From NCBI RefSeq assembly GCF_030867145.1, contig NC_134440.1, positions 4,402,001 through 4,466,000 on the forward strand: a stretch of 64,000 nt of DNA. The letters are read 5' to 3'. The translations under genes were made by a program, and so were the position numbers. The notes beneath the pieces are model-generated. The model did no database searches, was not told where the DNA came from, and saw only the letters and a program-made list of their open reading frames with translations. The stretch comes from Opisthocomus hoazin. Taxonomy: Eukaryota > Chordata > Aves > Opisthocomiformes > Opisthocomidae. How positions within the stretch are numbered: the stretch's first letter is position 1; every line of letters starts with the position of its first letter. Below, piece by piece: positions 34,582 through 64,000 of this stretch.

Positions 34582-35430
34582 ATGTGGCACCCACTGCTGT
34601 CCCCTTTCCGAGTGGCCACCGTGATCCTGTGCCTCCAGTGGGCTGCCAACAGTGCTGGGCCGGGTGGCCTGGCTCTCGCTGTGTGTCTCGGGCTGCCCCT
34701 CACAGAGGGCAAGATGGCGGGCGGCCCTGCACTCGGCCATGCCCATGCAGCGTCCTTGGCCCTCAGCCCCCAGCGCCACAGGGCCGAGGTCCCTCCTGCA
34801 TGGCAGGGAGGACACGAGATCACCACCAACTCACCAGGCTTTGGGAACACGACACCAGGTAATGGGGAGATCAGTGGAGGGCCCATGGAGGCCTTCATCA
34901 TGGAGGTGAACACGAGGTTTCGGAGGAAGGCCTGCCAGGCTGAGCAAGGGACCGTCATCCTCCTGGATGAGTGCCACTTCTGGAACAACATTGTGTGGAG
35001 CTTCGGCCACCATGCCTGCAGGTGCCTCACCCACGACATAGACCTCCTTTACTATGGTCTGATTCTGCCAGTTTGCAAGGTCACCAGCACCCTGATCACC
35101 ATGATAACCGGCATCCAGCTTCTGGCAAGAGGCTTGAAGAGCTACCAAAGCTGGAGGGAGGGCAAACAGCAGAGCAAGGAATGGTGGCCAGAGCTTCCCA
35201 TCACCACGGTTTGGGGGGCTGAGGACTACCCCGAGTGTGCCATCTGCCTGCAGGCGTACAAGCCCGGCGAGGCGCTGAAGTTGCTGTCCTGCCTCCATGC
35301 CTACCACGGCAAGTGCATCGACCTGTGGCACTGTGCCCAGCCCGGGAGCAAGACCTGCCCGCTCTGCCTGCACTGCGTGACCAAGGTAGCGTTGATCCCC
35401 TTCGGTGCACACAACAGCAAGCAAGAGTAG
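34582..35430 (+). CDS. ZNRF4/RNF13-like PA-TM-RING membrane protein, RING-H2 intact, PA domain eroded
   Basis: An intronless 282-codon frame. The frame is open further left to 34339, but the ATG at 34582 is preferred: its context ACCACCATGT is strong and a hydrophobic leader follows (about residues 1-40). Residues 104-132 (AFIMEVN...GTVILL) resemble the start of the PA domain of ZNRF4 (GYLMEV...GAIVLI), but the second half of that domain is not recognisable. A membrane segment spans about residues 155-182. After the linker PELPITTVWGAEDYPECAIC comes a complete RING-H2: C219, C222, C237, H239, H242, C245, C259 and C262. Family members are E3 ubiquitin ligases of internal membranes; ZNRF4 is single-exon and testis-enriched in mammals. 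By the motif the RING should bind zinc and could recruit an E2; whether the shortened luminal part binds a substrate is unknown. The frame has no internal stop. It could be a real lineage-specific gene or a young pseudogene. Confidence 0.68.
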   Translation: MWHPLLSPFRVATVILCLQWAANSAGPGGLALAVCLGLPLTEGKMAGGPALGHAHAASLALSPQRHRAEVPPAWQGGHEITTNSPGFGNTTPGNGEISGGPMEAFIMEVNTRFRRKACQAEQGTVILLDECHFWNNIVWSFGHHACRCLTHDIDLLYYGLILPVCKVTSTLITMITGIQLLARGLKSYQSWREGKQQSKEWWPELPITTVWGAEDYPECAICLQAYKPGEALKLLSCLHAYHGKCIDLWHCAQPGSKTCPLCLHCVTKVALIPFGAHNSKQE

Positions 35431-38920: not shown

Positions 38921-39339
38921 TGTTTCGGTTTCGGCTGCCGCCGGCAACAAAAGCGCCACGCGGCCGCCCCTCCCCCCGCCGGCGTGCGGAGGAGAATGGA
39001 AAGAAAGAGGCAGAAACCGGTGGGTCGGGATAAGGGCAGTTTAACAGAACAGCAAACAGAGGGAAAACAGGAACAACAACGATACAAATAGGGAGAAAAC
39101 ACAACCACGAACCGTACACCTCAGACAGCCGCTCTCCCGAAACAGGACCGGCGCTGCGCCCCCCCCAAGCCGCGAGTGCCTTCCCGCCGCGCCGCCCCCC
39201 CCACCGGAACCCCGCGTGACGTCACATGGTATGGAACACCGGGCTCTGTTTGGCCAGGTGGGGTCAGCCCCCACCCCCCGGCTGTGCCCCTTCCTGGAGT
39301 CCGGTGAAAATTAACCCTGTCCTGGCCAAACCCAGGACA
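38921..39339 (-). repeat. ERV-L 3' LTR (left copy)
   Basis: 419 bp bounded by TG and CA in plus-strand view; it is the 3' LTR because the element reads leftwards. It is GC-rich, with runs of C, and holds the CRE-like octamer TGACGTCA at 39217-39224, which may serve as a promoter element. It differs from the right copy at three sites. Confidence 0.92.
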
Positions 39340-39362
39340 TTATCCACCCCTTATTCCATACC
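39340..39362 (-). promoter_or_regulatory. Polypurine tract of the provirus
   Basis: Read on the minus strand, GGAATAAGGGGTGGATAAT abuts the 3' LTR. A purine-rich run at this place primes plus-strand DNA synthesis in LTR elements. Confidence 0.7.
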
Positions 39363-39900
39363 ATCTACGTCATGCCCAGGTCCCCCATTGTTCAGTTGAT
39401 CACCACCACTTCTCCTGTCTCCAGATATCATTCCCTTAGGCTATGGATCATCACTCTAAAGTGTCTGTTGAGTTCATTTAATCCATGACTTCAGGCTCCA
39501 TCTGTCGTTATGGTCTTCCGTGGCAGGGGAGGTGATGCGTGGTGATGGGCGGTCACTTGCTGCATCCGGAGCTCACGGCTGATGTATCTGGTGCAGCCCG
39601 TGCCCACAGTCTGCAGGAGATGTTGATCTTGATGAAGTTGCTGGATGCCAGTTGTTGAAAACCAGGTCCAGTTCCATCATTGCTGTGCTCTGCTAGGTTT
39701 TCATCGAAAAAGTCCATCCTTCTTTAATCTGGAGAATTCTTACTATGCTACTACTGGTACAAAATATAACAATTATAACAGTGATAACAGACAGTGACAG
39801 GGTTATTTAACAACTAACTTTATACAACTTATTTATGGACTATTCTCGCCCAAAATTAAATCCCCATGAGGTACACATCGGACTTCCCCATCCTTCCGCA
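39363..39900 (-). other. Non-coding 3' internal region of the provirus
   Basis: About 540 bp between the end of the pol-like region and the polypurine tract. No envelope-like or other domain is recognised, in keeping with an env-less ERV-L. Confidence 0.6.
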
Positions 39901-42900: not shown

Positions 42901-42996
42901 ACCAGTGTCCACTAGAGCTTGATACTCTTGTGGCTCTGACGTGCCAGGCCACCGAATCCACACCGTCCAATAAACACGGTTGTCCCTTTCCTCCAC
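39901..42996 (-). pseudogene. pol: ERV-L pol-like region (protease, reverse transcriptase, RNase H, integrase)
   Basis: Reading right to left, the region shows a retroviral aspartic protease motif (VDTGA, near 42.9 kb), reverse transcriptase with LPQGW and the catalytic YIDD (42073-42084), the ERV-L thumb and connection phrases, and RNase H with FTDGS (near 41.1 kb). It then shows integrase with the HHCC zinc-binding pattern, the core phrase WQIDYI and the GKIERYNG segment (near 40.2 kb). The order is that of a class III retrovirus. The region is a recent fossil, broken at a small number of places. Confidence 0.88.
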
Positions 42997-43017
42997 CTGG
43001 CTGGAGGCAGGGCCCCT

Positions 43018-45044: not shown

Positions 45045-45152
45045 TTTTACCGGCGACTATTTAAGTAACACAGAAAAAATGCCTACAACAAAATTTAACA
45101 AAATCTAAGAAAGCAGTTTTAACACCCGCTGCTCAGCCCTGCCGTTATCCCC

Positions 45153-45171
45153 GCTCCACGTCTGGGCGCCA
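45153..45171 (-). promoter_or_regulatory. Primer-binding site, tRNA-Lys-like
   Basis: Six bases inside the 5' LTR, the minus strand reads TGGCGCCCAGACGTGGAGC. The TGGCGCCC start is typical for priming by tRNA-Lys. Mammalian ERV-L elements classically use tRNA-Leu, so the primer differs from the family's namesake. Confidence 0.75.
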
Positions 45172-45177
45172 ATTTAA

Positions 45178-45596
45178 TGTTTCGGTTTCGGCTGCCGCCG
45201 GCAACAAAAGCGCCACGCGGCCGCCCCTCCCCCCGCCGGCGTGCGGAGGAGAATGGAAAGAAAGAGGCAGAAACCGGTGGGTCGGGATAAGGGCAGTTTA
45301 ACAGAACAGCAAACAGAGGGAAAACAGGAACAACAACGGTACAAACAGGGAGAAAACACAACCACGAACCGTACACCTCAGACAGCCGCTCTCCCGAAAC
45401 AGGACCGGCGCTGCGCCCCCCCCAAGCCGCGAGTGCCTTCCCGCCGCGCCGCCCCCCCCACCGGAACCCCGCGTGATGTCACATGGTATGGAACACCGGG
45501 CTCTGTTTGGCCAGGTGGGGTCAGCCCCCACCCCCCGGCTGTGCCCCTTCCTGGAGTCCGGTGAAAATTAACCCTGTCCTGGCCAAACCCAGGACA
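45178..45596 (-). repeat. ERV-L 5' LTR (right copy)
   Basis: 419 bp, TG to CA; it is the 5' LTR because the primer-binding site lies just inside it. Its promoter would drive transcription leftwards, away from the tandem array. Antisense or bidirectional activity towards the array, whose first unit begins 65 bp further right, is conceivable but cannot be seen. Confidence 0.92.
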
Positions 45597-45661: not shown

Positions 45662-46920
45662 CTGTTTGTTAAAAGGTACAGGTTTTTAGGGATTTGTGGT
45701 TCTGAACTGACCTGGGTTCACTGCGTATTCAGACCTAGTTCATTCCAACAACCAAGAGCTACTGCATTCCCATCAGGCTGGTGTTCCTCCGGGCACTGAG
45801 CAGTCACCATACAAGTGGGAATTGCCTGGAAGATGGGAGTTTCTGCTGTCAAACACTCTGGGAGGGAGGGACAATACTTGTCCCTTATGCTTTCCAGTCC
45901 TTTTTCAGTTTTTCCACCATAATTTTAAAATCAGTTTTTACAGACAGAAGCTTAAGTCTTTTTTAGCTTTTTCATTTCCAACAGCTAAAATTTTAAAGTA
46001 AATAAGGTGAAAAGCCCCAATAGATGTTGAAGGTAGCCCTCCCAAGCTCATCCACCACCCACTCTCACTGTGGTAGGACAGGAGACCAACAAGCTCAGCC
46101 TCAGCAAGACCCTATCGTATCAGCCCCTTCAGCAGAGCTAGCTGCTCACCCAGGGGCCTTGGAGGTGGATCTGCCCTCTCACCAGTTTGGGTAATGGCAG
46201 AGTGAGGCCACACGGGCAAACAGAGACTTTCAACTTCTGCTAGCTGCCATTCTGACCGGCAGTTACCAATCAACTCATTTGAAATGGCAGAAACCTCTTC
46301 TACCCTAAGCAATTTATTTGGCTTGGTATCACTTCAAACATCACAATTTTGAGAAAAAAGTGCATGTTCGCCAGACCAATCCAAGCTGCCACACACCCCC
46401 CCAGCAGACAGAAGCTTGTTCCCACTCTGCCACGTTTTTCAGCAACAGACACGTAGCTGATGGGGAGGCTCATTCACCCTGTCTGCACATCATCAGCAAA
46501 AGGAGACTGGCATCCTCTAGGTACCCAGAGGGAGATGAAGTTAGAAGCTACGTGCTTGGAGCAGACCAGAAAGGAAGGGGAGAAGAGGTTTAAGCAGGTT
46601 TGCAGTAATGTTACACAGCCCAGCCTTGGGAAACGGTCACCGGGTGATGTCACAGATCTGCAGAGATGACCTAAGGGTGTTGCTTAGCCACTAGAGACAA
46701 CAAAAGAGAAGAGTTCTACCCTTAGAACCTCCGGAACCTGCAGAAAGCCTGTGGAGACCTCTAGGGCAGAAGCAGGTTTTGATCTCCGTCCTGCTGCGGC
46801 TCCAAGTCACGGCATAGTGATATCATCCAGGTGGGATTGTGGCTCTGTGACTGCCTCTTACACTTTTCCTTCGGGACAAGCCGGGAAATTGGTGTTCAGA
46901 GCTACCCAACTGCCTCCATC
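45662..46920 (+). promoter_or_regulatory. Unit 1 upstream region (putative promoter and 5' UTR)
   Basis: 1259 bp before the signal-peptide ATG. No TATA box at a sensible distance and no domain-bearing frame is seen. A CRE-like palindrome GTGATGTCAC lies at 46644-46653, about 270 bp before the ATG. CREM, which acts on CRE sites in spermatids, would suit a testis-type gene, but that is inference. The same region recurs in every unit at +2827 steps. Confidence 0.4.
46644..46653. promoter_or_regulatory. CRE-like palindrome GTGATGTCAC
   Basis: One base off the TGACGTCA consensus; the outer bases are symmetric. It is found at the same offset (982 bp) in each unit. Without expression data it is only a candidate. 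Confidence 0.35.
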
Positions 46921-47913
46921 ATGAACCTCCGGCTCCTGCTTCTTTGCTTTACGGTTGCTGCTTCCTTCTTCAATGCTGCTCTTGCCTTTGGGTAAGTGGC
47001 TTACAATGACAGTTCTGAGTGTGTTCTTTATAAAGAAGCCCTGCCTGCATGCTTTGGGCCATGGCTCCCGGCAGAAGGGCTGACAGGGTATTTGATGAGG
47101 GTGACACCATCAAATGCTTGCCATCCAACAGAGAATCCTCCAACACCAAGAAAGGCCTCTGAGACCTACATTGCACTCATACAAGGGTATGATTGCTCTT
47201 TTGCCGAGAAAGTCCTTCACGACCAGCAGGCTAGATACCAAGCTGCTGTTGTCCACAATGTGGATTCAGAGCAACTGGTTACTGTGATGGCTGATGACAA
47301 AGAAATTAAGATACCATCACTCTTTACGGGACAATCGGTCTCCCTTCACTTGCAAAGGACACTGTAAGACGAGAAACAGGCATGCATCAGACTTCTGCCA
47401 CCCAAACAGTATTTGAATCCTTGTCAAGACAATGCTAAAATGCTGCAGGAAACTTTCGTCATGCAGGTTTTCAGGAATGTATTCTACATCATTATTTCCA
47501 CTATTGCAATTATGGGTGGCTTAAGCTTGTACAAGAGGGCTCACAAGAGAAAGCTTCACACATACGGGGAGGTAGACAATTACGAGACCCATGTGATCTG
47601 CATAGCAGAGTACAAGGAAGGGGACCACCTAAAGATCCTGGTCTGTTCTTACACTTACAGTTCCTTCATCGACACCTGGTTCTTCATCCAGTTTGGGAAG
47701 AGGAGACGTCCCTTCTGCAAGCAGGTGGTGAAAACCCAAAGGCAAGGTGACGTGCCAGATCAGGCTGGCGAAGGTGTGAATGAGGAGAAACAGGACTCTG
47801 AAGACAATGCAGTCATAGAAGGGCGTGAAGAGGAATACATTGAAGAGGAGAAAGATGATGCAAGCACAGTGGAAGAGGAATGGTTTGATGCACAGCAGAA
47901 CAGCACCAATTGA
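46921..47913 (+). pseudogene. Array unit 1 (type A): broken ZNRF4/RNF13-like gene, RING ligands lost
   Basis: One reading frame of 331 codons runs from the ATG at 46921 to the stop ending at 47913, with TAA at 46993-46995 and 47365-47367 inside it and no frameshift. Parts in order: a 24-residue signal peptide; after the first stop a PA domain with the ZNRF4-like phrases LPAEGLTGYLM, SNACHP, YDCSFAEKVL and AAVVHNVDSEQL; after the second stop a short loop, a membrane segment (RNVFYIIISTIAIMGGLSLY), a degenerate RING and an acidic tail (EEEYIEEEKDDASTVEEEWF). Of eight RING ligands only three cysteines remain, in HVICIAEY, ILVCSYTY and RRPFCKQ. The first stop overlaps a perfect donor (G|GTAAGT). 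The frame is intronless. It is most likely a pseudogene amplified after decay. Alternatives are a spliced non-coding RNA, or a short membrane protein starting at the ATG at 47440. Confidence 0.8.
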
Positions 47914-48488
47914 GCTGTGACCAGGATAAGTTATCATTAAATTGAGGGGAGTCTCCCCTGTGCTTTCTTTCAGCTCTTGCTGCAGACTAGCTTGTATTGG
48001 GAAGCAATTAACAGCACAGCTTTGGCTGCTCTCCCTGGTCCCCGCAATGAAAAAAAAAGGCATGAAATCTCAGCTGGAAATACCAAAAACTCCCTGAGCC
48101 ACAGCAATGGGGGAGAAGCAGAAAGGAGGAGGGAAGCAGGGATGTAAGAACATTTGGTATGGGAACTGGCTTACAGCTATTGGGATACTTCCTCCATTCC
48201 CTCTCAAAATACACATGTATGGACACATGGGCACTCCCCAAAGCCATTCCCGATGTGGCCCGAAGGATTATTTAGGACAGTGTCCTGGGAGTGCTTGGGG
48301 TTCAGCCAGTAGTGCAAAGACAGAACTGGGCAGATTTGATGGGGTCCGGTGTCTGCACCCACAGTCGAGATTTCCACTGCAGGAGTTAGAGCTCCATGAA
48401 ACAAATTACATCTAATTTGAGCGGGTATGTGGTGTCCAAGGAGCATCACCATGCAAATATTTATTCAATTATTTATTCAATTATTAAC
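47914..48488 (+). other. Unit 1 downstream region to the unit junction
   Basis: About 575 bp without a supported gene. It has a good splice-acceptor-like sequence (TGCTTTCTTTCAG, near 47960-47974), an A run of nine, and near its end a 12-bp word TTTATTCAATTA repeated twice directly before the junction. The acceptor could pair with the donor at 46992, which would splice out the whole PA-TM-RING body; this is only a possibility. Confidence 0.45.
47936..47941 (+). terminator. Possible polyadenylation signal ATTAAA
   Basis: ATTAAA lies 23 bp after the stop codon of unit 1 and is followed within about 40 bp by a GT/T-rich stretch. ATTAAA is the commonest variant of AATAAA. It recurs in each unit. 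Confidence 0.4.
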
Positions 48489-51315
48489 CTGTTTGTTAAA
48501 AGGTACAGGTTTTTAGGGATTTGTGGTTCTGAACTGACCTGGGTTCACTGCGTATTCAGACCTAGTTCATTCCAACAACCAAGAGCTACTGCATTCCCAT
48601 CAGGCTGGTGTTCCTCCGGGCACTGAGCAGTCACCATACAAGTGGGAATTGCCTGGAAGATGGGAGTTTCTGCTGTCAAACACTCTGGGAGGGAGGGACA
48701 ATACTTGTCCCTTATGCTTTCCAGTCCTTTTTCAGTTTTTCCACCATAATTTTAAAATCAGTTTTTACAGACAGAAGCTTAAGTCTTTTTTAGCTTTTTC
48801 ATTTCCAACAGCTAAAATTTTAAAGTAAATAAGGTGAAAAGCCCCAATAGATGTTGAAGGTAGCCCTCCCAAGCTCATCCACCACCCACTCTCACTGTGG
48901 TAGGACAGGAGACCAACAAGCTCAGCCTCAGCAAGACCCTATCGTATCAGCCCCTTCAGCAGAGCTAGCTGCTCACCCAGGGGCCTTGGAGGTGGATCTG
49001 CCCTCTCACCAGTTTGGGTAATGGCAGAGTGAGGCCACACGGGCAAACAGAGACTTTCAACTTCTGCTAGCTGCCATTCTGACCGGCAGTTACCAATCAA
49101 CTCATTTGAAATGGCAGAAACCTCTTCTACCCTAAGCAATTTATTTGGCTTGGTATCACTTCAAACATCACAATTTTGAGAAAAAAGTGCATGTTCGCCA
49201 GACCAATCCAAGCTGCCACACACCCCCCCAGCAGACAGAAGCTTGTTCCCACTCTGCCACGTTTTTCAGCAACAGACACGTAGCTGATGGGGAGGCTCAT
49301 TCACCCTGTCTGCACATCATCAGCAAAAGGAGACTGGCATCCTCTAGGTACCCAGAGGGAGATGAAGTTAGAAGCTACGTGCTTGGAGCAGACCAGAAAG
49401 GAAGGGGAGAAGAGGTTTAAGCAGGTTTGCAGTAATGTTACACAGCCCAGCCTTGGGAAACGGTCACCGGGTGATGTCACAGATCTGCAGAGATGACCTA
49501 AGGGTGTTGCTTAGCCACTAGAGACAACAAAAGAGAAGAGTTCTACCCTTAGAACCTCCGGAACCTGCAGAAAGCCTGTGGAGACCTCTAGGGCAGAAGC
49601 AGGTTTTGATCTCCGTCCTGCTGCGGCTCCAAGTCACGGCATAGTGATATCATCCAGGTGGGATTGTGGCTCTGTGACTGCCTCTTACACTTTTCCTTCG
49701 GGACAAGCCGGGAAATTGGTGTTCAGAGCTACCCAACTGCCTCCATCATGAACCTCCGGCTCCTGCTTCTTTGCTTTACGGTTGCTGCTTCCTTCTTCAA
49801 TGCTGCTCTTGCCTTTGGGTAAGTGGCTTACAATGACAGTTCTGAGTGTGTTCTTTATAAAGCCCTGCCTGCATGCTTTGGGCCATGGCTCCCGGCAGAA
49901 GGGCTGACAGGGTATTTGATGAGGGTGACACCATCAAATGCTTGCCATCCAACAGAGAATCCTCCAACACCAAGAAAGGCCTCTGAGACCTACATTGCAC
50001 TCATACAAGGGTATGATTGCTCTTTTGCCGAGAAAGTCCTTCACGACCAGCAGGCTAGATACCAAGCTGCTGTTGTCCACAATGTGGATTCAGAGCAACT
50101 GGTTACTGTGATGGCTGATGACAAAGAAATTAAGATACCATCACTCTTTACGGGACAATCGGTCTCCCTTCACTTGCAAAGGACACTGTAAGACGAGAAA
50201 CAGGCATGCATCAGACTTCTGCCACCCAAACAGTATTTGAATCCTTGTCAAGACAATGCTAAAATGCTGCAGGAAGCTTTCGTCATGCAGGTTTTCAGGA
50301 ATGTATTCTACATCATTATTTCCACTATTGCAATTATGGGTGGCTTAAGCTTGTACAAGAGGGCTCACAAGAGAAAGCTTCACACATACGGGGAGGTAGA
50401 CAATTACGAGACCCATGTGATCTGCATAGCAGAGTACAAGGAAGGGGACCACCTAAAGATCCTGGTCTGTTCTTACACTTACAGTTCCTTCATCGACACC
50501 TGGTTCTTCATCCAGTTTGGGAAGAGGAGACGTCCCTTCTGCAAGCAGGTGGTGAAAACCCAAAGGCAAGGTGACGTGCCAGATCAGGCTGGCGAAGGTG
50601 TGAATGAGGAGAAACAGGACTCTGAAGACAATGCAGTCATAGAAGGGCGTGAAGAGGAATACATTGAAGAGGAGAAAGATGATGCAAGCACAGTGGAAGA
50701 GGAATGGTTTGATGCACAGCAGAACAGCACCACTTGAGCTGTGACCAGGATAAGTTATCATTAAATTGAGGGGAGTCTCCCCTGTGCTTTCTTTCAGCTC
50801 TTGCTGCAGACTAGCTTGTATTGGGAAGCAATTAACAGCACAGCTTTGGCTGCTCTCCCTGGTCCCCGCAATGAAAAAAAAAAAAGGCATGAAATCTCAG
50901 CTGGAAATACCAAAAACTCCCTGAGCCACAGCAATGGGGGAGAAGCAGAAAGGAGGAGGGAAGCAGGGATGTAAGAACATTTGGTATGGGAACTGGCTTA
51001 CAGCTATTGGGATACTTCCTCAATTCCCTCTCAAAATACACATGTATGGACACATGGGCACTCCCCAAAGCCATTCCCGATGTGGCCCGAAGGATTATTT
51101 AGGACAGTGTCCTGGGAGTGCTTGGGGTTCAGCCAGTAGTGCAAAGACAGAACTGGGCAGATTTGATGGGGTCCGGTGTCTGCACCCACAGTCGAGATTT
51201 CCACTGCAGGAGTTAGAGCTCCATGAAACAAATTACATCTAATTTGAGCGGGTATGTGGTGTCCAAGGAGCATCACCATGCAAATATTTATTCAATTATT
51301 TATTCAATTATTAAC
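48489..51315 (+). repeat. Array unit 2, type B1
   Basis: 2827 bp. Type marks: AAAGCCC (3 bp shorter), GAAGCTTTCG, GTGAATGAGG, an A run of twelve, CCTCAATTCCC. It shares all marks seen with unit 4. Confidence 0.95.
49748..50737 (+). pseudogene. Array unit 2: broken ZNRF4/RNF13-like gene (B1)
   Basis: 330 codons, one fewer than unit 1 (a Glu codon lost after LYK). In-frame TAA stops lie at 49820-49822 and 50189-50191, as in unit 1. Changes from type A: Thr to Ala in LQEAFVMQ and Asn to Thr at the last residue. The three remaining RING cysteines are unchanged. Confidence 0.8.
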
Positions 51316-54142
51316 CTGTTTGTTAAAAGGTACAGGTTTTTAGGGATTTGTGGTTCTGAACTGACCTGGGTTCACTGCGTATTCAGACCTAGTTCATTCC
51401 AACAACCAAGAGCTACTGCATTCCCATCAGGCTGGTGTTCCTCCGGGCACTGAGCAGTCACCATACAAGTGGGAATTGCCTGGAAGATGGGAGTTTCTGC
51501 TGTCAAACACTCTGGGAGGGAGGGACAATACTTGTCCCTTATGCTTTCCAGTCCTTTTTCAGTTTTTCCACCATAATTTTAAAATCAGTTTTTACAGACA
51601 GAAGCTTAAGTCTTTTTTAGCTTTTTCATTTCCAACAGCTAAAATTTTAAAGTAAATAAGGTGAAAAGCCCCAATAGATGTTGAAGGTAGCCCTCCCAAG
51701 CTCATCCACCACCCACTCTCACTGTGGTAGGACAGGAGACCAACAAGCTCAGCCTCAGCAAGACCCTATCGTATCAGCCCCTTCAGCAGAGCTAGCTGCT
51801 CACCCAGGGGCCTTGGAGGTGGATCTGCCCTCTCACCAGTTTGGGTAATGGCAGAGTGAGGCCACACGGGCAAACAGAGACTTTCAACTTCTGCTAGCTG
51901 CCATTCTGACCGGCAGTTACCAATCAACTCATTTGAAATGGCAGAAACCTCTTCTACCCTAAGCAATTTATTTGGCTTGGTATCACTTCAAACATCACAA
52001 TTTTGAGAAAAAAGTGCATGTTCGCCAGACCAATCCAAGCTGCCACACACCCCCCCAGCAGACAGAAGCTTGTTCCCACTCTGCCACGTTTTTCAGCAAC
52101 AGACACGTAGCTGATGGGGAGGCTCATTCACCCTGTCTGCACATCATCAGCAAAAGGAGACTGGCATCCTCTAGGTACCCAGAGGGAGATGAAGTTAGAA
52201 GCTACGTGCTTGGAGCAGACCAGAAAGGAAGGGGAGAAGAGGTTTAAGCAGGTTTGCAGTAATGTTACACAGCCCAGCCTTGGGAAACGGTCACCGGGTG
52301 ATGTCACAGATCTGCAGAGATGACCTAAGGGTGTTGCTTAGCCACTAGAGACAACAAAAGAGAAGAGTTCTACCCTTAGAACCTCCGGAACCTGCAGAAA
52401 GCCTGTGGAGACCTCTAGGGCAGAAGCAGGTTTTGATCTCCGTCCTGCTGCGGCTCCAAGTCACGGCATAGTGATATCATCCAGGTGGGATTGTGGCTCT
52501 GTGACTGCCTCTTACACTTTTCCTTCGGGACAAGCCGGGAAATTGGTGTTCAGAGCTACCCAACTGCCTCCATCATGAACCTCCGGCTCCTGCTTCTTTG
52601 CTTTACGGTTGCTGCTTCCTTCTTCAATGCTGCTCTTGCCTTTGGGTAAGTGGCTTACAATGACAGTTCTGAGTGTGTTCTTTATAAAGCCCTGCCTGCA
52701 TGCTTTGGGCCATGGCTCCCGGCAGAAGGGCTGACAGGGTATTTGATGAGGGTGACACCATCAAATGCTTGCCATCCAACAGAGAATCCTCCAACACCAA
52801 GAAAGGCCTCTGAGACCTACATTGCACTCATACAAGGGTATGATTGCTCTTTTGCCGAGAAAGTCCTTCACGACCAGCAGGCTAGATACCAAGCTGCTGT
52901 TGTCCACAATGTGGATTCAGAGCAACTGGTTACTGTGATGGCTGATGACAAAGAAATTAAGATACCATCACTCTTTACGGGACAATCGGTCTCCCTTCAC
53001 TTGCAAAGGACACTGTAAGACGAGAAACAGGCATGCATCAGACTTCTGCCACCCAAACAGTATTTGAATCCTTGTCAAGACAATGCTAAAATGCTGCAGG
53101 AAGCTTTCGTCATGCAGGTTTTCAGGAATGTATTCTACATCATTATTTCCACTATTGCAATTATGGGTGGCTTAAGCTTGTACAAGAGGGCTCACAAGAG
53201 AAAGCTTCACACATACGGGGAGGTAGACAATTACGAGACCCATGTGATCTGCATAGCAGAGTACAAGGAAGGGGACCACCTAAAGATCCTGGTCTGTTCT
53301 TACACTTACAGTTCCTTCATCGACACCTGGTTCTTCATCCAGTTTGGGAAGAGGAGACGTCCCTTCTGCAAGCAGGTGGTGAAAACCCAAAGGCAAGGTG
53401 ACGTGCCAGATCAGGCTGGCGAAGGTGTGAATAAGGAGAAACAGGACTCTGAAGACAATGCAGTCATAGAAGGGCGTGAAGAGGAATACATTGAAGAGGA
53501 GAAAGATGATGCAAGCACAGTGGAAGAGGAATGGTTTGATGCACAGCAGAACAGCACCACTTGAGCTGTGACCAGGATAAGTTATCATTAAATTGAGGGG
53601 AGTCTCCCCTGTGCTTTCTTTCAGCTCTTGCTGCAGACTAGCTTGTATTGGGAAGCAATTAACAGCACAGCTTTGGCTGCTCTCCCTGGTCCCCGCAATG
53701 AAAAAAAAAAAAGGCATGAAATCTCAGCTGGAAATACCAAAAACTCCCTGAGCCACAGCAATGGGGGAGAAGCAGAAAGGAGGAGGGAAGCAGGGATGTA
53801 AGAACATTTGGTATGGGAACTGGCTTACAGCTATTGGGATACTTCCTCCATTCCCTCTCAAAATACACATGTATGGACACATGGGCACTCCCCAAAGCCA
53901 TTCCCGATGTGGCCCGAAGGATTATTTAGGACAGTGTCCTGGGAGTGCTTGGGGTTCAGCCAGTAGTGCAAAGACAGAACTGGGCAGATTTGATGGGGTC
54001 CGGTGTCTGCACCCACAGTCGAGATTTCCACTGCAGGAGTTAGAGCTCCATGAAACAAATTACATCTAATTTGAGCGGGTATGTGGTGTCCAAGGAGCAT
54101 CACCATGCAAATATTTATTCAATTATTTATTCAATTATTAAC
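51316..54142 (+). repeat. Array unit 3, type B2
   Basis: 2827 bp. It has the B marks (AAAGCCC, GAAGCTTTCG, twelve A) but GTGAATAAGG and CCTCCATTCCC, which it shares with unit 5. Confidence 0.95.
52575..53564 (+). pseudogene. Array unit 3: broken ZNRF4/RNF13-like gene (B2)
   Basis: As unit 2, but Glu to Lys in the acidic tail (GVNKEKQD in place of GVNEEKQD). Stops lie at 52647-52649 and 53016-53018. Confidence 0.8.
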
Positions 54143-56969
54143 CTGTTTGTTAAAAGGTACAGGTTTTTAGGGATTTGTGGTTCTGAACTGACCTGGGTTC
54201 ACTGCGTATTCAGACCTAGTTCATTCCAACAACCAAGAGCTACTGCATTCCCATCAGGCTGGTGTTCCTCCGGGCACTGAGCAGTCACCATACAAGTGGG
54301 AATTGCCTGGAAGATGGGAGTTTCTGCTGTCAAACACTCTGGGAGGGAGGGACAATACTTGTCCCTTATGCTTTCCAGTCCTTTTTCAGTTTTTCCACCA
54401 TAATTTTAAAATCAGTTTTTACAGACAGAAGCTTAAGTCTTTTTTAGCTTTTTCATTTCCAACAGCTAAAATTTTAAAGTAAATAAGGTGAAAAGCCCCA
54501 ATAGATGTTGAAGGTAGCCCTCCCAAGCTCATCCACCACCCACTCTCACTGTGGTAGGACAGGAGACCAACAAGCTCAGCCTCAGCAAGACCCTATCGTA
54601 TCAGCCCCTTCAGCAGAGCTAGCTGCTCACCCAGGGGCCTTGGAGGTGGATCTGCCCTCTCACCAGTTTGGGTAATGGCAGAGTGAGGCCACACGGGCAA
54701 ACAGAGACTTTCAACTTCTGCTAGCTGCCATTCTGACCGGCAGTTACCAATCAACTCATTTGAAATGGCAGAAACCTCTTCTACCCTAAGCAATTTATTT
54801 GGCTTGGTATCACTTCAAACATCACAATTTTGAGAAAAAAGTGCATGTTCGCCAGACCAATCCAAGCTGCCACACACCCCCCCAGCAGACAGAAGCTTGT
54901 TCCCACTCTGCCACGTTTTTCAGCAACAGACACGTAGCTGATGGGGAGGCTCATTCACCCTGTCTGCACATCATCAGCAAAAGGAGACTGGCATCCTCTA
55001 GGTACCCAGAGGGAGATGAAGTTAGAAGCTACGTGCTTGGAGCAGACCAGAAAGGAAGGGGAGAAGAGGTTTAAGCAGGTTTGCAGTAATGTTACACAGC
55101 CCAGCCTTGGGAAACGGTCACCGGGTGATGTCACAGATCTGCAGAGATGACCTAAGGGTGTTGCTTAGCCACTAGAGACAACAAAAGAGAAGAGTTCTAC
55201 CCTTAGAACCTCCGGAACCTGCAGAAAGCCTGTGGAGACCTCTAGGGCAGAAGCAGGTTTTGATCTCCGTCCTGCTGCGGCTCCAAGTCACGGCATAGTG
55301 ATATCATCCAGGTGGGATTGTGGCTCTGTGACTGCCTCTTACACTTTTCCTTCGGGACAAGCCGGGAAATTGGTGTTCAGAGCTACCCAACTGCCTCCAT
55401 CATGAACCTCCGGCTCCTGCTTCTTTGCTTTACGGTTGCTGCTTCCTTCTTCAATGCTGCTCTTGCCTTTGGGTAAGTGGCTTACAATGACAGTTCTGAG
55501 TGTGTTCTTTATAAAGCCCTGCCTGCATGCTTTGGGCCATGGCTCCCGGCAGAAGGGCTGACAGGGTATTTGATGAGGGTGACACCATCAAATGCTTGCC
55601 ATCCAACAGAGAATCCTCCAACACCAAGAAAGGCCTCTGAGACCTACATTGCACTCATACAAGGGTATGATTGCTCTTTTGCCGAGAAAGTCCTTCACGA
55701 CCAGCAGGCTAGATACCAAGCTGCTGTTGTCCACAATGTGGATTCAGAGCAACTGGTTACTGTGATGGCTGATGACAAAGAAATTAAGATACCATCACTC
55801 TTTACGGGACAATCGGTCTCCCTTCACTTGCAAAGGACACTGTAAGACGAGAAACAGGCATGCATCAGACTTCTGCCACCCAAACAGTATTTGAATCCTT
55901 GTCAAGACAATGCTAAAATGCTGCAGGAAGCTTTCGTCATGCAGGTTTTCAGGAATGTATTCTACATCATTATTTCCACTATTGCAATTATGGGTGGCTT
56001 AAGCTTGTACAAGAGGGCTCACAAGAGAAAGCTTCACACATACGGGGAGGTAGACAATTACGAGACCCATGTGATCTGCATAGCAGAGTACAAGGAAGGG
56101 GACCACCTAAAGATCCTGGTCTGTTCTTACACTTACAGTTCCTTCATCGACACCTGGTTCTTCATCCAGTTTGGGAAGAGGAGACGTCCCTTCTGCAAGC
56201 AGGTGGTGAAAACCCAAAGGCAAGGTGACGTGCCAGATCAGGCTGGCGAAGGTGTGAATGAGGAGAAACAGGACTCTGAAGACAATGCAGTCATAGAAGG
56301 GCGTGAAGAGGAATACATTGAAGAGGAGAAAGATGATGCAAGCACAGTGGAAGAGGAATGGTTTGATGCACAGCAGAACAGCACCACTTGAGCTGTGACC
56401 AGGATAAGTTATCATTAAATTGAGGGGAGTCTCCCCTGTGCTTTCTTTCAGCTCTTGCTGCAGACTAGCTTGTATTGGGAAGCAATTAACAGCACAGCTT
56501 TGGCTGCTCTCCCTGGTCCCCGCAATGAAAAAAAAAAAAGGCATGAAATCTCAGCTGGAAATACCAAAAACTCCCTGAGCCACAGCAATGGGGGAGAAGC
56601 AGAAAGGAGGAGGGAAGCAGGGATGTAAGAACATTTGGTATGGGAACTGGCTTACAGCTATTGGGATACTTCCTCAATTCCCTCTCAAAATACACATGTA
56701 TGGACACATGGGCACTCCCCAAAGCCATTCCCGATGTGGCCCGAAGGATTATTTAGGACAGTGTCCTGGGAGTGCTTGGGGTTCAGCCAGTAGTGCAAAG
56801 ACAGAACTGGGCAGATTTGATGGGGTCCGGTGTCTGCACCCACAGTCGAGATTTCCACTGCAGGAGTTAGAGCTCCATGAAACAAATTACATCTAATTTG
56901 AGCGGGTATGTGGTGTCCAAGGAGCATCACCATGCAAATATTTATTCAATTATTTATTCAATTATTAAC
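54143..56969 (+). repeat. Array unit 4, type B1
   Basis: 2827 bp; the marks equal those of unit 2, 5654 bp to the left. Confidence 0.95.
55402..56391 (+). pseudogene. Array unit 4: broken ZNRF4/RNF13-like gene (B1)
   Basis: The translation agrees with unit 2 throughout. Stops lie at 55474-55476 and 55843-55845. Confidence 0.8.
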
Positions 56970-59796
56970 CTGTTTGTTAAAAGGTACAGGTTTTTAGGGA
57001 TTTGTGGTTCTGAACTGACCTGGGTTCACTGCGTATTCAGACCTAGTTCATTCCAACAACCAAGAGCTACTGCATTCCCATCAGGCTGGTGTTCCTCCGG
57101 GCACTGAGCAGTCACCATACAAGTGGGAATTGCCTGGAAGATGGGAGTTTCTGCTGTCAAACACTCTGGGAGGGAGGGACAATACTTGTCCCTTATGCTT
57201 TCCAGTCCTTTTTCAGTTTTTCCACCATAATTTTAAAATCAGTTTTTACAGACAGAAGCTTAAGTCTTTTTTAGCTTTTTCATTTCCAACAGCTAAAATT
57301 TTAAAGTAAATAAGGTGAAAAGCCCCAATAGATGTTGAAGGTAGCCCTCCCAAGCTCATCCACCACCCACTCTCACTGTGGTAGGACAGGAGACCAACAA
57401 GCTCAGCCTCAGCAAGACCCTATCGTATCAGCCCCTTCAGCAGAGCTAGCTGCTCACCCAGGGGCCTTGGAGGTGGATCTGCCCTCTCACCAGTTTGGGT
57501 AATGGCAGAGTGAGGCCACACGGGCAAACAGAGACTTTCAACTTCTGCTAGCTGCCATTCTGACCGGCAGTTACCAATCAACTCATTTGAAATGGCAGAA
57601 ACCTCTTCTACCCTAAGCAATTTATTTGGCTTGGTATCACTTCAAACATCACAATTTTGAGAAAAAAGTGCATGTTCGCCAGACCAATCCAAGCTGCCAC
57701 ACACCCCCCCAGCAGACAGAAGCTTGTTCCCACTCTGCCACGTTTTTCAGCAACAGACACGTAGCTGATGGGGAGGCTCATTCACCCTGTCTGCACATCA
57801 TCAGCAAAAGGAGACTGGCATCCTCTAGGTACCCAGAGGGAGATGAAGTTAGAAGCTACGTGCTTGGAGCAGACCAGAAAGGAAGGGGAGAAGAGGTTTA
57901 AGCAGGTTTGCAGTAATGTTACACAGCCCAGCCTTGGGAAACGGTCACCGGGTGATGTCACAGATCTGCAGAGATGACCTAAGGGTGTTGCTTAGCCACT
58001 AGAGACAACAAAAGAGAAGAGTTCTACCCTTAGAACCTCCGGAACCTGCAGAAAGCCTGTGGAGACCTCTAGGGCAGAAGCAGGTTTTGATCTCCGTCCT
58101 GCTGCGGCTCCAAGTCACGGCATAGTGATATCATCCAGGTGGGATTGTGGCTCTGTGACTGCCTCTTACACTTTTCCTTCGGGACAAGCCGGGAAATTGG
58201 TGTTCAGAGCTACCCAACTGCCTCCATCATGAACCTCCGGCTCCTGCTTCTTTGCTTTACGGTTGCTGCTTCCTTCTTCAATGCTGCTCTTGCCTTTGGG
58301 TAAGTGGCTTACAATGACAGTTCTGAGTGTGTTCTTTATAAAGCCCTGCCTGCATGCTTTGGGCCATGGCTCCCGGCAGAAGGGCTGACAGGGTATTTGA
58401 TGAGGGTGACACCATCAAATGCTTGCCATCCAACAGAGAATCCTCCAACACCAAGAAAGGCCTCTGAGACCTACATTGCACTCATACAAGGGTATGATTG
58501 CTCTTTTGCCGAGAAAGTCCTTCACGACCAGCAGGCTAGATACCAAGCTGCTGTTGTCCACAATGTGGATTCAGAGCAACTGGTTACTGTGATGGCTGAT
58601 GACAAAGAAATTAAGATACCATCACTCTTTACGGGACAATCGGTCTCCCTTCACTTGCAAAGGACACTGTAAGACGAGAAACAGGCATGCATCAGACTTC
58701 TGCCACCCAAACAGTATTTGAATCCTTGTCAAGACAATGCTAAAATGCTGCAGGAAGCTTTCGTCATGCAGGTTTTCAGGAATGTATTCTACATCATTAT
58801 TTCCACTATTGCAATTATGGGTGGCTTAAGCTTGTACAAGAGGGCTCACAAGAGAAAGCTTCACACATACGGGGAGGTAGACAATTACGAGACCCATGTG
58901 ATCTGCATAGCAGAGTACAAGGAAGGGGACCACCTAAAGATCCTGGTCTGTTCTTACACTTACAGTTCCTTCATCGACACCTGGTTCTTCATCCAGTTTG
59001 GGAAGAGGAGACGTCCCTTCTGCAAGCAGGTGGTGAAAACCCAAAGGCAAGGTGACGTGCCAGATCAGGCTGGCGAAGGTGTGAATAAGGAGAAACAGGA
59101 CTCTGAAGACAATGCAGTCATAGAAGGGCGTGAAGAGGAATACATTGAAGAGGAGAAAGATGATGCAAGCACAGTGGAAGAGGAATGGTTTGATGCACAG
59201 CAGAACAGCACCACTTGAGCTGTGACCAGGATAAGTTATCATTAAATTGAGGGGAGTCTCCCCTGTGCTTTCTTTCAGCTCTTGCTGCAGACTAGCTTGT
59301 ATTGGGAAGCAATTAACAGCACAGCTTTGGCTGCTCTCCCTGGTCCCCGCAATGAAAAAAAAAAAAGGCATGAAATCTCAGCTGGAAATACCAAAAACTC
59401 CCTGAGCCACAGCAATGGGGGAGAAGCAGAAAGGAGGAGGGAAGCAGGGATGTAAGAACATTTGGTATGGGAACTGGCTTACAGCTATTGGGATACTTCC
59501 TCCATTCCCTCTCAAAATACACATGTATGGACACATGGGCACTCCCCAAAGCCATTCCCGATGTGGCCCGAAGGATTATTTAGGACAGTGTCCTGGGAGT
59601 GCTTGGGGTTCAGCCAGTAGTGCAAAGACAGAACTGGGCAGATTTGATGGGGTCCGGTGTCTGCACCCACAGTCGAGATTTCCACTGCAGGAGTTAGAGC
59701 TCCATGAAACAAATTACATCTAATTTGAGCGGGTATGTGGTGTCCAAGGAGCATCACCATGCAAATATTTATTCAATTATTTATTCAATTATTAAC
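56970..59796 (+). repeat. Array unit 5, type B2
   Basis: 2827 bp; the marks equal those of unit 3, 5654 bp to the left, completing the second B1-B2 dimer. Confidence 0.95.
58229..59218 (+). pseudogene. Array unit 5: broken ZNRF4/RNF13-like gene (B2)
   Basis: The translation agrees with unit 3, including GVNKEKQD. Stops lie at 58301-58303 and 58670-58672. Confidence 0.8.
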
Positions 59797-62623
59797 CTGT
59801 TTGTTAAAAGGTACAGGTTTTTAGGGATTTGTGGTTCTGAACTGACCTGGGTTCACTGCGTATTCAGACCTAGTTCATTCCAACAACCAAGAGCTACTGC
59901 ATTCCCATCAGGCTGGTGTTCCTCCGGGCACTGAGCAGTCACCATACAAGTGGGAATTGCCTGGAAGATGGGAGTTTCTGCTGTCAAACACTCTGGGAGG
60001 GAGGGACAATACTTGTCCCTTATGCTTTCCAGTCCTTTTTCAGTTTTTCCACCATAATTTTAAAATCAGTTTTTACAGACAGAAGCTTAAGTCTTTTTTA
60101 GCTTTTTCATTTCCAACAGCTAAAATTTTAAAGTAAATAAGGTGAAAAGCCCCAATAGATGTTGAAGGTAGCCCTCCCAAGCTCATCCACCACCCACTCT
60201 CACTGTGGTAGGACAGGAGACCAACAAGCTCAGCCTCAGCAAGACCCTATCGTATCAGCCCCTTCAGCAGAGCTAGCTGCTCACCCAGGGGCCTTGGAGG
60301 TGGATCTGCCCTCTCACCAGTTTGGGTAATGGCAGAGTGAGGCCACACGGGCAAACAGAGACTTTCAACTTCTGCTAGCTGCCATTCTGACCGGCAGTTA
60401 CCAATCAACTCATTTGAAATGGCAGAAACCTCTTCTACCCTAAGCAATTTATTTGGCTTGGTATCACTTCAAACATCACAATTTTGAGAAAAAAGTGCAT
60501 GTTCGCCAGACCAATCCAAGCTGCCACACACCCCCCCAGCAGACAGAAGCTTGTTCCCACTCTGCCACGTTTTTCAGCAACAGACACGTAGCTGATGGGG
60601 AGGCTCATTCACCCTGTCTGCACATCATCAGCAAAAGGAGACTGGCATCCTCTAGGTACCCAGAGGGAGATGAAGTTAGAAGCTACGTGCTTGGAGCAGA
60701 CCAGAAAGGAAGGGGAGAAGAGGTTTAAGCAGGTTTGCAGTAATGTTACACAGCCCAGCCTTGGGAAACGGTCACCGGGTGATGTCACAGATCTGCAGAG
60801 ATGACCTAAGGGTGTTGCTTAGCCACTAGAGACAACAAAAGAGAAGAGTTCTACCCTTAGAACCTCCGGAACCTGCAGAAAGCCTGTGGAGACCTCTAGG
60901 GCAGAAGCAGGTTTTGATCTCCGTCCTGCTGCGGCTCCAAGTCACGGCATAGTGATATCATCCAGGTGGGATTGTGGCTCTGTGACTGCCTCTTACACTT
61001 TTCCTTCGGGACAAGCCGGGAAATTGGTGTTCAGAGCTACCCAACTGCCTCCATCATGAACCTCCGGCTCCTGCTTCTTTGCTTTACGGTTGCTGCTTCC
61101 TTCTTCAATGCTGCTCTTGCCTTTGGGTAAGTGGCTTACAATGACAGTTCTGAGTGTGTTCTTTATAAAGAAGCCCTGCCTGCATGCTTTGGGCCATGGC
61201 TCCCGGCAGAAGGGCTGACAGGGTATTTGATGAGGGTGACACCATCAAATGCTTGCCATCCAACAGAGAATCCTCCAACACCAAGAAAGGCCTCTGAGAC
61301 CTACATTGCACTCATACAAGGGTATGATTGCTCTTTTGCCGAGAAAGTCCTTCACGACCAGCAGGCTAGATACCAAGCTGCTGTTGTCCACAATGTGGAT
61401 TCAGAGCAACTGGTTACTGTGATGGCTGATGACAAAGAAATTAAGATACCATCACTCTTTACGGGACAATCGGTCTCCCTTCACTTGCAAAGGACACTGT
61501 AAGACGAGAAACAGGCATGCATCAGACTTCTGCCACCCAAACAGTATTTGAATCCTTGTCAAGACAATGCTAAAATGCTGCAGGAAACTTTCGTCATGCA
61601 GGTTTTCAGGAATGTATTCTACATCATTATTTCCACTATTGCAATTATGGGTGGCTTAAGCTTGTACAAGAGGGCTCACAAGAGAAAGCTTCACACATAC
61701 GGGGAGGTAGACAATTACGAGACCCATGTGATCTGCATAGCAGAGTACAAGGAAGGGGACCACCTAAAGATCCTGGTCTGTTCTTACACTTACAGTTCCT
61801 TCATCGACACCTGGTTCTTCATCCAGTTTGGGAAGAGGAGACGTCCCTTCTGCAAGCAGGTGGTGAAAACCCAAAGGCAAGGTGACGTGCCAGATCAGGC
61901 TGGCGAAGGTGTGAATGAGGAGAAACAGGACTCTGAAGACAATGCAGTCATAGAAGGGCGTGAAGAGGAATACATTGAAGAGGAGAAAGATGATGCAAGC
62001 ACAGTGGAAGAGGAATGGTTTGATGCACAGCAGAACAGCACCAATTGAGCTGTGACCAGGATAAGTTATCATTAAATTGAGGGGAGTCTCCCCTGTGCTT
62101 TCTTTCAGCTCTTGCTGCAGACTAGCTTGTATTGGGAAGCAATTAACAGCACAGCTTTGGCTGCTCTCCCTGGTCCCCGCAATGAAAAAAAAAGGCATGA
62201 AATCTCAGCTGGAAATACCAAAAACTCCCTGAGCCACAGCAATGGGGGAGAAGCAGAAAGGAGGAGGGAAGCAGGGATGTAAGAACATTTGGTATGGGAA
62301 CTGGCTTACAGCTATTGGGATACTTCCTCCATTCCCTCTCAAAATACACATGTATGGACACATGGGCACTCCCCAAAGCCATTCCCGATGTGGCCCGAAG
62401 GATTATTTAGGACAGTGTCCTGGGAGTGCTTGGGGTTCAGCCAGTAGTGCAAAGACAGAACTGGGCAGATTTGATGGGGTCCGGTGTCTGCACCCACAGT
62501 CGAGATTTCCACTGCAGGAGTTAGAGCTCCATGAAACAAATTACATCTAATTTGAGCGGGTATGTGGTGTCCAAGGAGCATCACCATGCAAATATTTATT
62601 CAATTATTTATTCAATTATTAAC
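59797..62623 (+). repeat. Array unit 6, type A
   Basis: 2827 bp with AAAGAAGCCC, GAAACTTTCG, nine A and CCTCCATTCCC, as in unit 1. The return of type A after four B units shows that the order is not a simple gradient. Confidence 0.95.
61056..62048 (+). pseudogene. Array unit 6: broken ZNRF4/RNF13-like gene (A)
   Basis: 331 codons; the translation agrees with unit 1 throughout, with Thr in LQETFVMQ and a terminal Asn. Stops lie at 61128-61130 and 61500-61502. Confidence 0.8.
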
Positions 62624-64000
62624 CTGTTTGTTAAAAGGTACAGGTTTTTAGGGATTTGTGGTTCTGAACTGACCTGGGTTCACTGCGTATTCAGACCTAG
62701 TTCATTCCAACAACCAAGAGCTACTGCATTCCCATCAGGCTGGTGTTCCTCCGGGCACTGAGCAGTCACCATACAAGTGGGAATTGCCTGGAAGATGGGA
62801 GTTTCTGCTGTCAAACACTCTGGGAGGGAGGGACAATACTTGTCCCTTATGCTTTCCAGTCCTTTTTCAGTTTTTCCACCATAATTTTAAAATCAGTTTT
62901 TACAGACAGAAGCTTAAGTCTTTTTTAGCTTTTTCATTTCCAACAGCTAAAATTTTAAAGTAAATAAGGTGAAAAGCCCCAATAGATGTTGAAGGTAGCC
63001 CTCCCAAGCTCATCCACCACCCACTCTCACTGTGGTAGGACAGGAGACCAACAAGCTCAGCCTCAGCAAGACCCTATCGTATCAGCCCCTTCAGCAGAGC
63101 TAGCTGCTCACCCAGGGGCCTTGGAGGTGGATCTGCCCTCTCACCAGTTTGGGTAATGGCAGAGTGAGGCCACACGGGCAAACAGAGACTTTCAACTTCT
63201 GCTAGCTGCCATTCTGACCGGCAGTTACCAATCAACTCATTTGAAATGGCAGAAACCTCTTCTACCCTAAGCAATTTATTTGGCTTGGTATCACTTCAAA
63301 CATCACAATTTTGAGAAAAAAGTGCATGTTCGCCAGACCAATCCAAGCTGCCACACACCCCCCCAGCAGACAGAAGCTTGTTCCCACTCTGCCACGTTTT
63401 TCAGCAACAGACACGTAGCTGATGGGGAGGCTCATTCACCCTGTCTGCACATCATCAGCAAAAGGAGACTGGCATCCTCTAGGTACCCAGAGGGAGATGA
63501 AGTTAGAAGCTACGTGCTTGGAGCAGACCAGAAAGGAAGGGGAGAAGAGGTTTAAGCAGGTTTGCAGTAATGTTACACAGCCCAGCCTTGGGAAACGGTC
63601 ACCGGGTGATGTCACAGATCTGCAGAGATGACCTAAGGGTGTTGCTTAGCCACTAGAGACAACAAAAGAGAAGAGTTCTACCCTTAGAACCTCCGGAACC
63701 TGCAGAAAGCCTGTGGAGACCTCTAGGGCAGAAGCAGGTTTTGATCTCCGTCCTGCTGCGGCTCCAAGTCACGGCATAGTGATATCATCCAGGTGGGATT
63801 GTGGCTCTGTGACTGCCTCTTACACTTTTCCTTCGGGACAAGCCGGGAAATTGGTGTTCAGAGCTACCCAACTGCCTCCATCATGAACCTCCGGCTCCTG
63901 CTTCTTTGCTTTACGGTTGCTGCTTCCTTCTTCAATGCTGCTCTTGCCTTTGGGTAAGTGGCTTACAATGACAGTTCTGAGTGTGTTCTTTATAAAGAAG
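62624..64000 (+). repeat. Array unit 7, partial, probably type A
   Basis: The first 1377 bp of a unit. The only visible type mark (AAAGAAG at the very end) is that of type A. The array continues beyond the window. Confidence 0.95.
63883..64000 (+). pseudogene. Array unit 7: 5' part of the ZNRF4/RNF13-like gene, cut by the window edge
   Basis: It holds the signal peptide, the first in-frame TAA (63955-63957) with its donor-like GTAAGT, and the first codons of the PA region. The rest lies outside the window. Confidence 0.75.

What the first reader, a model, noticed from the sequence alone, without database searches (positions are those of the whole stretch)
45662..64000. Very uniform 2827-bp tandem array carrying a ZNRF4/RNF13-like frame
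Seven consecutive units repeat with an exactly constant period and about six variable sites each. Amplification of a whole gene unit with this uniformity is unusual in a bird genome. It suggests a recent burst or strong concerted evolution, as seen for sex-linked or germline-expressed multicopy genes. The total copy number is unknown because the array leaves the window.
Basis: partly seen in the sequence, partly recalled or inferred. Interest (0 to 1): 0.85.

Follow-up and report, generated by a model that had tools for sequence, protein, structure and literature searches.

The report
Dead ubiquitin-ligase gene, tandemly amplified eightfold
A bird, very probably the hoatzin, carries only a broken form of a membrane ubiquitin-ligase gene that many other birds keep, and the broken gene was recently multiplied into a tidy row of eight near-identical units; it is a clean record of a gene dying piece by piece and then being amplified, but not a new kind of system.

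Summary
The array is real: 2827-bp units from 45662, 0-4 substitutions between any two of the first seven. On the contig it ends 12 kb beyond the window with eight units; the seventh is 10.55 kb long. The genome is very probably Opisthocomus hoazin (TLR5 listed as 100% identical over 665 residues). The unit carries a ZNRF4/RNF13-like PA-TM-RING gene whose RING ligands are complete in 33 of 38 protein hits. Here all eight copies share two in-frame TAA codons, five of eight RING ligands are gone, and the genome search found no intact copy. So this is a unitary pseudogene, later amplified on what looks like an autosome (contig with KDM4B), not a sex-linked multicopy gene. Lineage-specific changes crowd in the RING (12/47 codons) and are rare in the PA domain (4/122), and the indels keep frame: the ligase part probably died first while the rest still coded. 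A hawk protein model indicates that the extra 7.7 kb of the seventh unit is ancestral flank, so the short unit arose by a 7.7-kb deletion. Uniformity fits recent unequal exchange (U1=U6, U2=U4, U3=U5). Copy number rests on one assembly without reads.

The parts
45662..48488 (+). Unit U1 (2827 bp; sequence type C, identical to U6)
48489..51315 (+). Unit U2 (type A, identical to U4)
51316..54142 (+). Unit U3 (type B, identical to U5)
54143..56969 (+). Unit U4 (type A)
56970..59796 (+). Unit U5 (type B)
59797..62623 (+). Unit U6 (type C)
62624..64000 (+). First part of unit U7, the long (10.55-kb) form; it continues to extended coordinate 73174 (window coordinates continued along contig C27), is followed by U8, and the array ends at 75978
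46921..47913 (+). U1 copy of the ZNRF4/RNF13-like frame (993 bp, in-frame TAA at codons 25 and 149)
49748..50737 (+). U2 copy of the frame (990 bp): signal-peptide-like codons 1-24 (by eye), TAA at 25, PA domain within 26-147, TAA at 148, hydrophobic stretch (by eye) and degenerate RING, acidic tail
52575..53564 (+). U3 copy, TAA at codons 25 and 148
55402..56391 (+). U4 copy, TAA at codons 25 and 148
58229..59218 (+). U5 copy, TAA at codons 25 and 148
61056..62048 (+). U6 copy, TAA at codons 25 and 149
63883..64000 (+). Start of the U7 copy (ends at extended coordinate 64875), TAA at codons 25 and 149
48469..48488 (+). 20-bp junction filler, identical at all seven internal junctions (also 51296, 54123, 56950, 59777, 62604 and extended 73155), absent from both outer edges
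34582..35430 (+). Neighbouring intact RING-only ZNRF4-like gene (ATG to TAG); no second copy in the 140 kb examined

Best explanation
The array is a young tandem amplification of a unitary pseudogene. In most birds sampled the protein is a PA-TM-RING ubiquitin ligase of the ZNRF4/RNF13 group, read as one frame, with a RING-only paralogue beside it in at least two gene models. On the hoatzin line (species inferred) the RING lost constraint first (five of eight ligands gone) while the PA domain stayed nearly unchanged and the frame was kept (inferred from where and how the changes fall); then two nonsense changes arose (shared by all eight copies, so most simply before amplification). A segment of about 10.5 kb was then duplicated head to tail by non-homologous joining that left a 20-bp filler (inferred from seven identical internal junctions); one copy lost 7.7 kb and became the 2827-bp unit (direction supported by one hawk protein model that reads into the 7.7 kb); unequal exchange or conversion between copies multiplied the short unit and kept it uniform (inferred from the order C-A-B-A-B-C-D-E and near-zero divergence). 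Nothing found requires the array to make a protein now.
For: 8 of 8 copies hold the same two TAA codons. The genome search with an ibis orthologue gave 15 matches among 35 scored candidates: the eight copies, the neighbour gene, and six short RING-region matches elsewhere; none is an intact orthologue. 33 of 38 protein hits have all eight RING ligands; the array keeps three, the same in all eight copies. PA 4/122 unique replacements against 34/181 after codon 148. RING:PA counts, array against pooled relatives: 12:4 against 42:125, p=1e-4 with 20 relatives; 12:3 against 33:148, p=2e-6 with 33. Deletions of 2, 4 and 1 codons not seen in any of 20 relatives, one more of 1 codon not seen in 18 of 20, and one polymorphic 3-bp insertion: no frameshift. 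U1=U6, U2=U4, U3=U5; edge unit U8 is the most diverged, 6-10 substitutions. Seven identical junction fillers, absent at both edges. The first 4803 bp of the 7.7 kb match only themselves in the genome and its start aligns with the tail of Accipiter nisus P0039, 67% over 55 residues, E 7e-14 in the 140 kb searched.
Against: Two nonsense codons with only 7 unique missense changes in the N-terminal half is slightly more than neutral decay predicts (expected 0.33, p=0.04, post hoc). Three of the four variable coding sites inside the array change the protein, which fits no constraint but says little at n=4. Only protein sequences of other birds were available, so no synonymous rate could be measured. 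The order of duplication, deletion and expansion is a reconstruction; another order could give the same end state. Copy number rests on one assembly without read depth.
Confidence: 0.83

Rival explanations
1. Functional multicopy gene: the array encodes a germline-expressed protein under selection for dosage, with the stops bypassed by splicing, readthrough or a new start.
For: No frameshift among the indels; PA domain hardly changed; the first TAA lies in GGGTAAGTGG in 8 of 8 copies, a good splice-donor match by eye; ZNRF4 is testis-specific in mouse and testis-biased amplicons exist on chicken dot chromosomes.
Against: Both TAA codons are in 8 of 8 copies; splicing from that donor past the second stop would remove the PA domain, the best-kept part; RING ligands lost. 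Expression was not tested.
Confidence: 0.06
2. Assembly artefact: one or two real units expanded by an assembler walking round a repeat cycle.
For: Exact duplicates in a C-A-B-A-B-C order look like a path that went round a cycle twice. No reads were available.
Against: Five distinct sequence types, a distinct long unit, a diverged edge unit, and different flanks on the two sides with no N in the extended region.
Confidence: 0.08
3. A variant of the best explanation: the C-terminal half was freed by the second stop (codon 148) alone, leaving for a long time a short secreted signal-peptide-PA protein; the first stop came later. The end state, a dead and amplified gene, is the same.
For: The rate changes sharply at codon 148 (4/122 against 34/181).
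Against: A neutral C-terminal half should have gained about 2-4 frameshifts and 1.6 stops; none seen (probability of no frameshift 0.02-0.14 by assumed indel rate, of no stop 0.20). RING changes exceed those of the rest of the C-terminal half relative to other birds (12:22 against 42:222, p=0.009), which suggests RING-specific loss before any stop.
Confidence: 0.3
4. The 7.7 kb in unit 7 is a later insertion into a short unit.
For: It interrupts one unit of eight, the simplest geometric reading.
Against: No target-site duplication (by eye) and no internal terminal repeats; no second copy for the 4803 of 7722 bp searched; its first 120 bp continues the homology with the hawk protein model across the boundary.
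Confidence: 0.05

Closest known systems
Avian ZNRF4 / 'RNF13-like' PA-TM-RING genes (Godzilla group: RNF13, RNF167, ZNRF4)
   Same: PA domain, hydrophobic segment, acidic tail, 52-74% identity to the 13 relatives aligned, contig shared with KDM4B, RING-only paralogue upstream.
   Different: Two stops in every copy, RING destroyed, eight copies. Copy number in other birds was not tested.
HINT1W array of the chicken W (5,648-bp unit, 52 tandem copies; passages of PMC9974502)
   Same: A whole-gene kilobase unit amplified in tandem in a bird genome.
   Different: W-linked, more copies, complete gene sequence; here an autosome-like contig, eight units, gene dead.
Macrosatellites such as D4Z4 and DXZ4 (starts of abstracts in the listing)
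   Same: Kilobase unit, head to tail, homogeneous, carrying a gene-derived frame (D4Z4).
   Different: Far fewer copies here (recalled for D4Z4 and DXZ4); no sign of a working frame; chromatin not tested.
RING-degenerate ZNRF4 of barbet and woodpecker (Pogoniulus P0036, Dryobates P0038)
   Same: PA domain kept, RING ligands lost.
   Different: Frames open in those gene models; they sit in a supported clade with Merops that does not contain the array, whose own place is unresolved, so independent loss is likely but inferred.

Membership tests
PA-TM-RING ubiquitin ligase (ZNRF4/RNF13 group) | PA domain | tested here: met
   PF02225, 33.9 bits, cut-off 23.9 (U2 copy)
PA-TM-RING ubiquitin ligase (ZNRF4/RNF13 group) | Complete RING with eight zinc ligands | tested here: not met
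   No Pfam RING hit; 3 of 8 ligands kept, same in 8 of 8 copies
PA-TM-RING ubiquitin ligase (ZNRF4/RNF13 group) | Open reading frame | tested here: not met
   Two in-frame TAA in 8 of 8 copies
PA-TM-RING ubiquitin ligase (ZNRF4/RNF13 group) | Orthology: homologues in birds and syntenic place | tested here: met
   38 protein hits, the best full-length one 72% identical; KDM4B exon 333 kb from the window end; that KDM4B lies near ZNRF4 in mammals is recalled
PA-TM-RING ubiquitin ligase (ZNRF4/RNF13 group) | Signal peptide and transmembrane helix | tested here: inconclusive
   Seen by eye in the translation; no predictor was run
Sex-linked ampliconic gene family | On Z or W | tested here: not met
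   C27 with KDM4B; DM-domain cluster on C41; W itself not identified
Sex-linked ampliconic gene family | Intact copies | tested here: not met
   No intact copy
Sex-linked ampliconic gene family | Germline expression | not testable with these tools
   No RNA data
Macrosatellite | Kilobase units, head to tail, high identity | tested here: met
Macrosatellite | Tens of copies or more, copy number variable between individuals | tested here: not met
   Eight in the assembly; variation between birds not testable
Unitary pseudogene | Disabled at the ancestral place, no working copy in the genome | tested here: met
   the genome search scores only the best candidates (35 here)

The most novel reading that the evidence does not exclude
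The PA domain has a job of its own that does not need the ligase. On the hoatzin line, as in barbets and woodpeckers, the RING was discarded while the PA-membrane part stayed under selection, and the eightfold array still supplies that PA module, with the stops bypassed through the splice-donor-like sequence at the first TAA or by readthrough: a ligase turned into an amplified decoy.
Probability: 0.06. Interest if true: 0.75.

Novelty: new member of a known kind. Interest (0 to 1): 0.36.

Why it matters
It separates two things that gene-array scans tend to confuse: uniform amplification and function. Here the sequence record suggests the order: catalytic part lost, frame broken, then amplification. 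If the PA-late pattern holds up with DNA from other birds, it also says that a ligase that is testis-specific in mouse can shed its catalytic RING and still be kept for a while, perhaps more than once in birds, which makes a RING-independent role of the PA domain testable.

Tried and rejected
RNA genes in the window: no Rfam family at gathering threshold, no tRNA by ARAGORN. A PDB search with the PA piece alone gave five weak matches, Tako8 and fibronectin chains, no PA protein. Reading the 7.7 kb as a transposon insertion was dropped after finding no terminal repeats or target-site duplication and the hawk homology. One search was mis-specified: its 3000-bp query held 2000 bp of array and 1000 bp of the 7.7 kb; one search replaced it and covered 4803 of 7722 bp; the last 2919 bp were not searched in the genome. 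An ND2 family search for species identification gave one match, on nuclear contig C41, so TLR5 was used. Neutral-rate ages are rough (rate about 2e-9 per site and year recalled; conversion ignored): U8 against the rest 0.5-0.9 million years, the rest at most 0.4.

Row choices: the unique-replacement counts used 20 of the 38 hits, picked by hand (dropped: P0011, P0013, P0023-P0027, P0029-P0039: palaeognaths, fused or truncated models, unnamed near-duplicates, damaged RINGs, and P0011 without a special reason); repeated with all 33 RING-complete hits with the same outcome. Across conservation classes the array's unique changes are flat (8/59 invariant, 21/162 high, 14/108 variable sites), as neutral decay would give; the regional split came from looking further, so the p-values are post hoc. 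The tree used 34 hits plus the array; most forks are open and the bootstrap had not settled.

Papers: search listings only for (40 and 71 empty); passages of PMC13431229, PMC9974502 (its section 9 whole) and PMC8834447. No paper describing this array showed in those listings; that is no proof of absence.

Full report
Where it is. The window is contig C27:4402001-4466000 of a 1.48-Gb genome in 415 contigs. A TLR5 frame from the same genome is listed as 100% identical over 665 residues to Opisthocomus hoazin TLR5, the next species reaching 93%, so the genome is very probably the hoatzin. C27 is 10.36 Mb. A JmjN exon 333 kb from the window end matches KDM4B best. Three of five DM-domain matches cluster on C41; such a cluster is expected on the avian Z (recalled). 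The array is therefore on what looks like an autosome; the W was not identified.

The array. Units start every 2827 bp from 45662. The window holds six full units and part of the seventh. Fetching 76 kb of further contig shows that unit 7 is 10.55 kb long because it holds 7722 bp more in its 3' flank, that unit 8 follows, and that the array ends at extended coordinate 75978. A PA-domain query found eight copies, 8 matches among 17 scored candidates. By sequence the units run C-A-B-A-B-C-D-E: U1=U6, U2=U4 and U3=U5 without a difference; U8, the edge unit, is the most diverged with 6-10 substitutions. All seven internal junctions have the same 20-bp A+T-rich filler, absent from both outer edges, which points to one founding junction.

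The gene. Each unit holds a frame of 329 or 330 codons: a signal-peptide-like start, a PA domain (PF02225), a hydrophobic stretch, a RING-like region whose best solved relative is RNF13, and an acidic tail. The protein search gave 38 hits, all from birds where a name is given, mostly called RNF13-like, RNF167-like or ZNRF4. 33 of 38 keep all eight RING ligands; the array keeps three, with the same RING residues in all eight copies. All eight copies have TAA at codon 25 and at codon 148 (149 where a 3-bp insertion precedes it). Searching the genome with an ibis orthologue found these eight, the neighbouring RING-only gene, and six short RING-region matches: 15 matches among 35 scored candidates, none an intact orthologue.

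How it decayed. Counting residues found in no relative, the PA domain has 4 in 122 codons, the part after codon 148 has 34 in 181, and the RING 12 in 47. Since other birds also change faster in the C-terminal part, the fair test is against their pooled counts: RING:PA is 12:4 in the array and 42:125 in 20 relatives (p=1e-4), or 12:3 and 33:148 with 33 relatives (p=2e-6); RING against the rest of the C-terminal part is also raised (p=0.009 and p=0.0003). These tests were chosen after seeing the data; by conservation class the unique changes are flat, which fits neutral decay. Four deletions and one polymorphic insertion are multiples of three (one deletion is shared with two of 20 relatives); with a neutral in-frame share of 0.2 (recalled) five of five has probability 0.0003, four of four 0.0016. 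So the frame was probably kept through much of the divergence, the RING lost early, the PA domain late, and the stops came late but, being in all copies, most simply before amplification. Against a simple story: two stops with only seven unique missense changes in the N-terminal half is a mild excess (p=0.04).

How it was amplified. The 7722 bp look like an insertion in unit 7 but carry no terminal repeats or target-site duplication, and their first 4803 bp match only themselves in the genome. The tail of the Accipiter nisus model P0039 aligns across the boundary into the 7.7 kb (67% over 55 residues, E 7e-14 in the 140 kb searched), so the long form is probably ancestral and the 2827-bp unit a deletion product. 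The likely order is: duplication of about 10.5 kb with filler, 7.7-kb deletion in one copy, multiplication and homogenisation of the short unit by unequal exchange or conversion.

Neighbours. At 34582-35430 lies an intact RING-only ZNRF4-like gene; six bird relatives aligned are 51-77% identical (32 hits). Two bird gene models, P0013 and P0023, fuse both genes in the same order, so the pair is an old arrangement. A provirus in minus orientation with 419-bp LTRs 99.3% identical lies at 38921-45596, 65 bp left of the array; it is not part of the unit.

Literature. ZNRF4 is testis-specific in mouse and appears so in human (passages of PMC8834447). Tandem gene arrays in birds are known: HINT1W, 5,648 bp, 52 copies, and testis-biased amplicons on dot chromosomes (PMC9974502). 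[quoted passage not shown] No paper on this array showed in the listings.

Verdict. The content is a dead gene, so the functional reading is unlikely. The most interesting part is the order of decay.

Noticed in passing
window 38921-45596 (-): Provirus in minus orientation: 419-bp LTRs 99.3% identical, 5-bp target-site duplication AGGTC (by eye), frames with RT, RNase H and integrase domains in separate pieces; 65 bp from the array edge.
   Followed up: partly
extended coordinate 80190-80607 (contig C27:4482190-4482607): Solo LTR of the same family (99.3-99.5% identical) with 5-bp target-site duplication GAGCC (by eye), right of the array.
   Followed up: partly
P0036, P0037, P0038 (Pogoniulus, Merops, Dryobates): RING region degenerate (P0036, P0038) or missing in a partial model (P0037) while the PA domain is kept: possible independent loss of the ligase part in a second bird clade.
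   Followed up: partly
P0034 (Cariama cristata): RING breaks off after five ligands with an unrelated end, as after a frameshift or a gene-model error.
   Followed up: no
window 49819-49824 and 50188-50193, and the same places in the other units: Both in-frame TAA codons lie in splice-donor-like contexts (GGTAAGT and TGTAAGA), in 8 of 8 copies; may be chance.
   Followed up: no
G000 contig C1:88.10 and 88.13 Mb: Two TIR matches with equal scores and 1056-codon open frames 28 kb apart, perhaps a recent duplication of TLR7 (name guessed from size).
   Followed up: no
P0002: The best orthologue hit comes from a 2856-bp contig, close to the unit length; could be coincidence or a collapsed tandem unit in another bird.
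   Followed up: no
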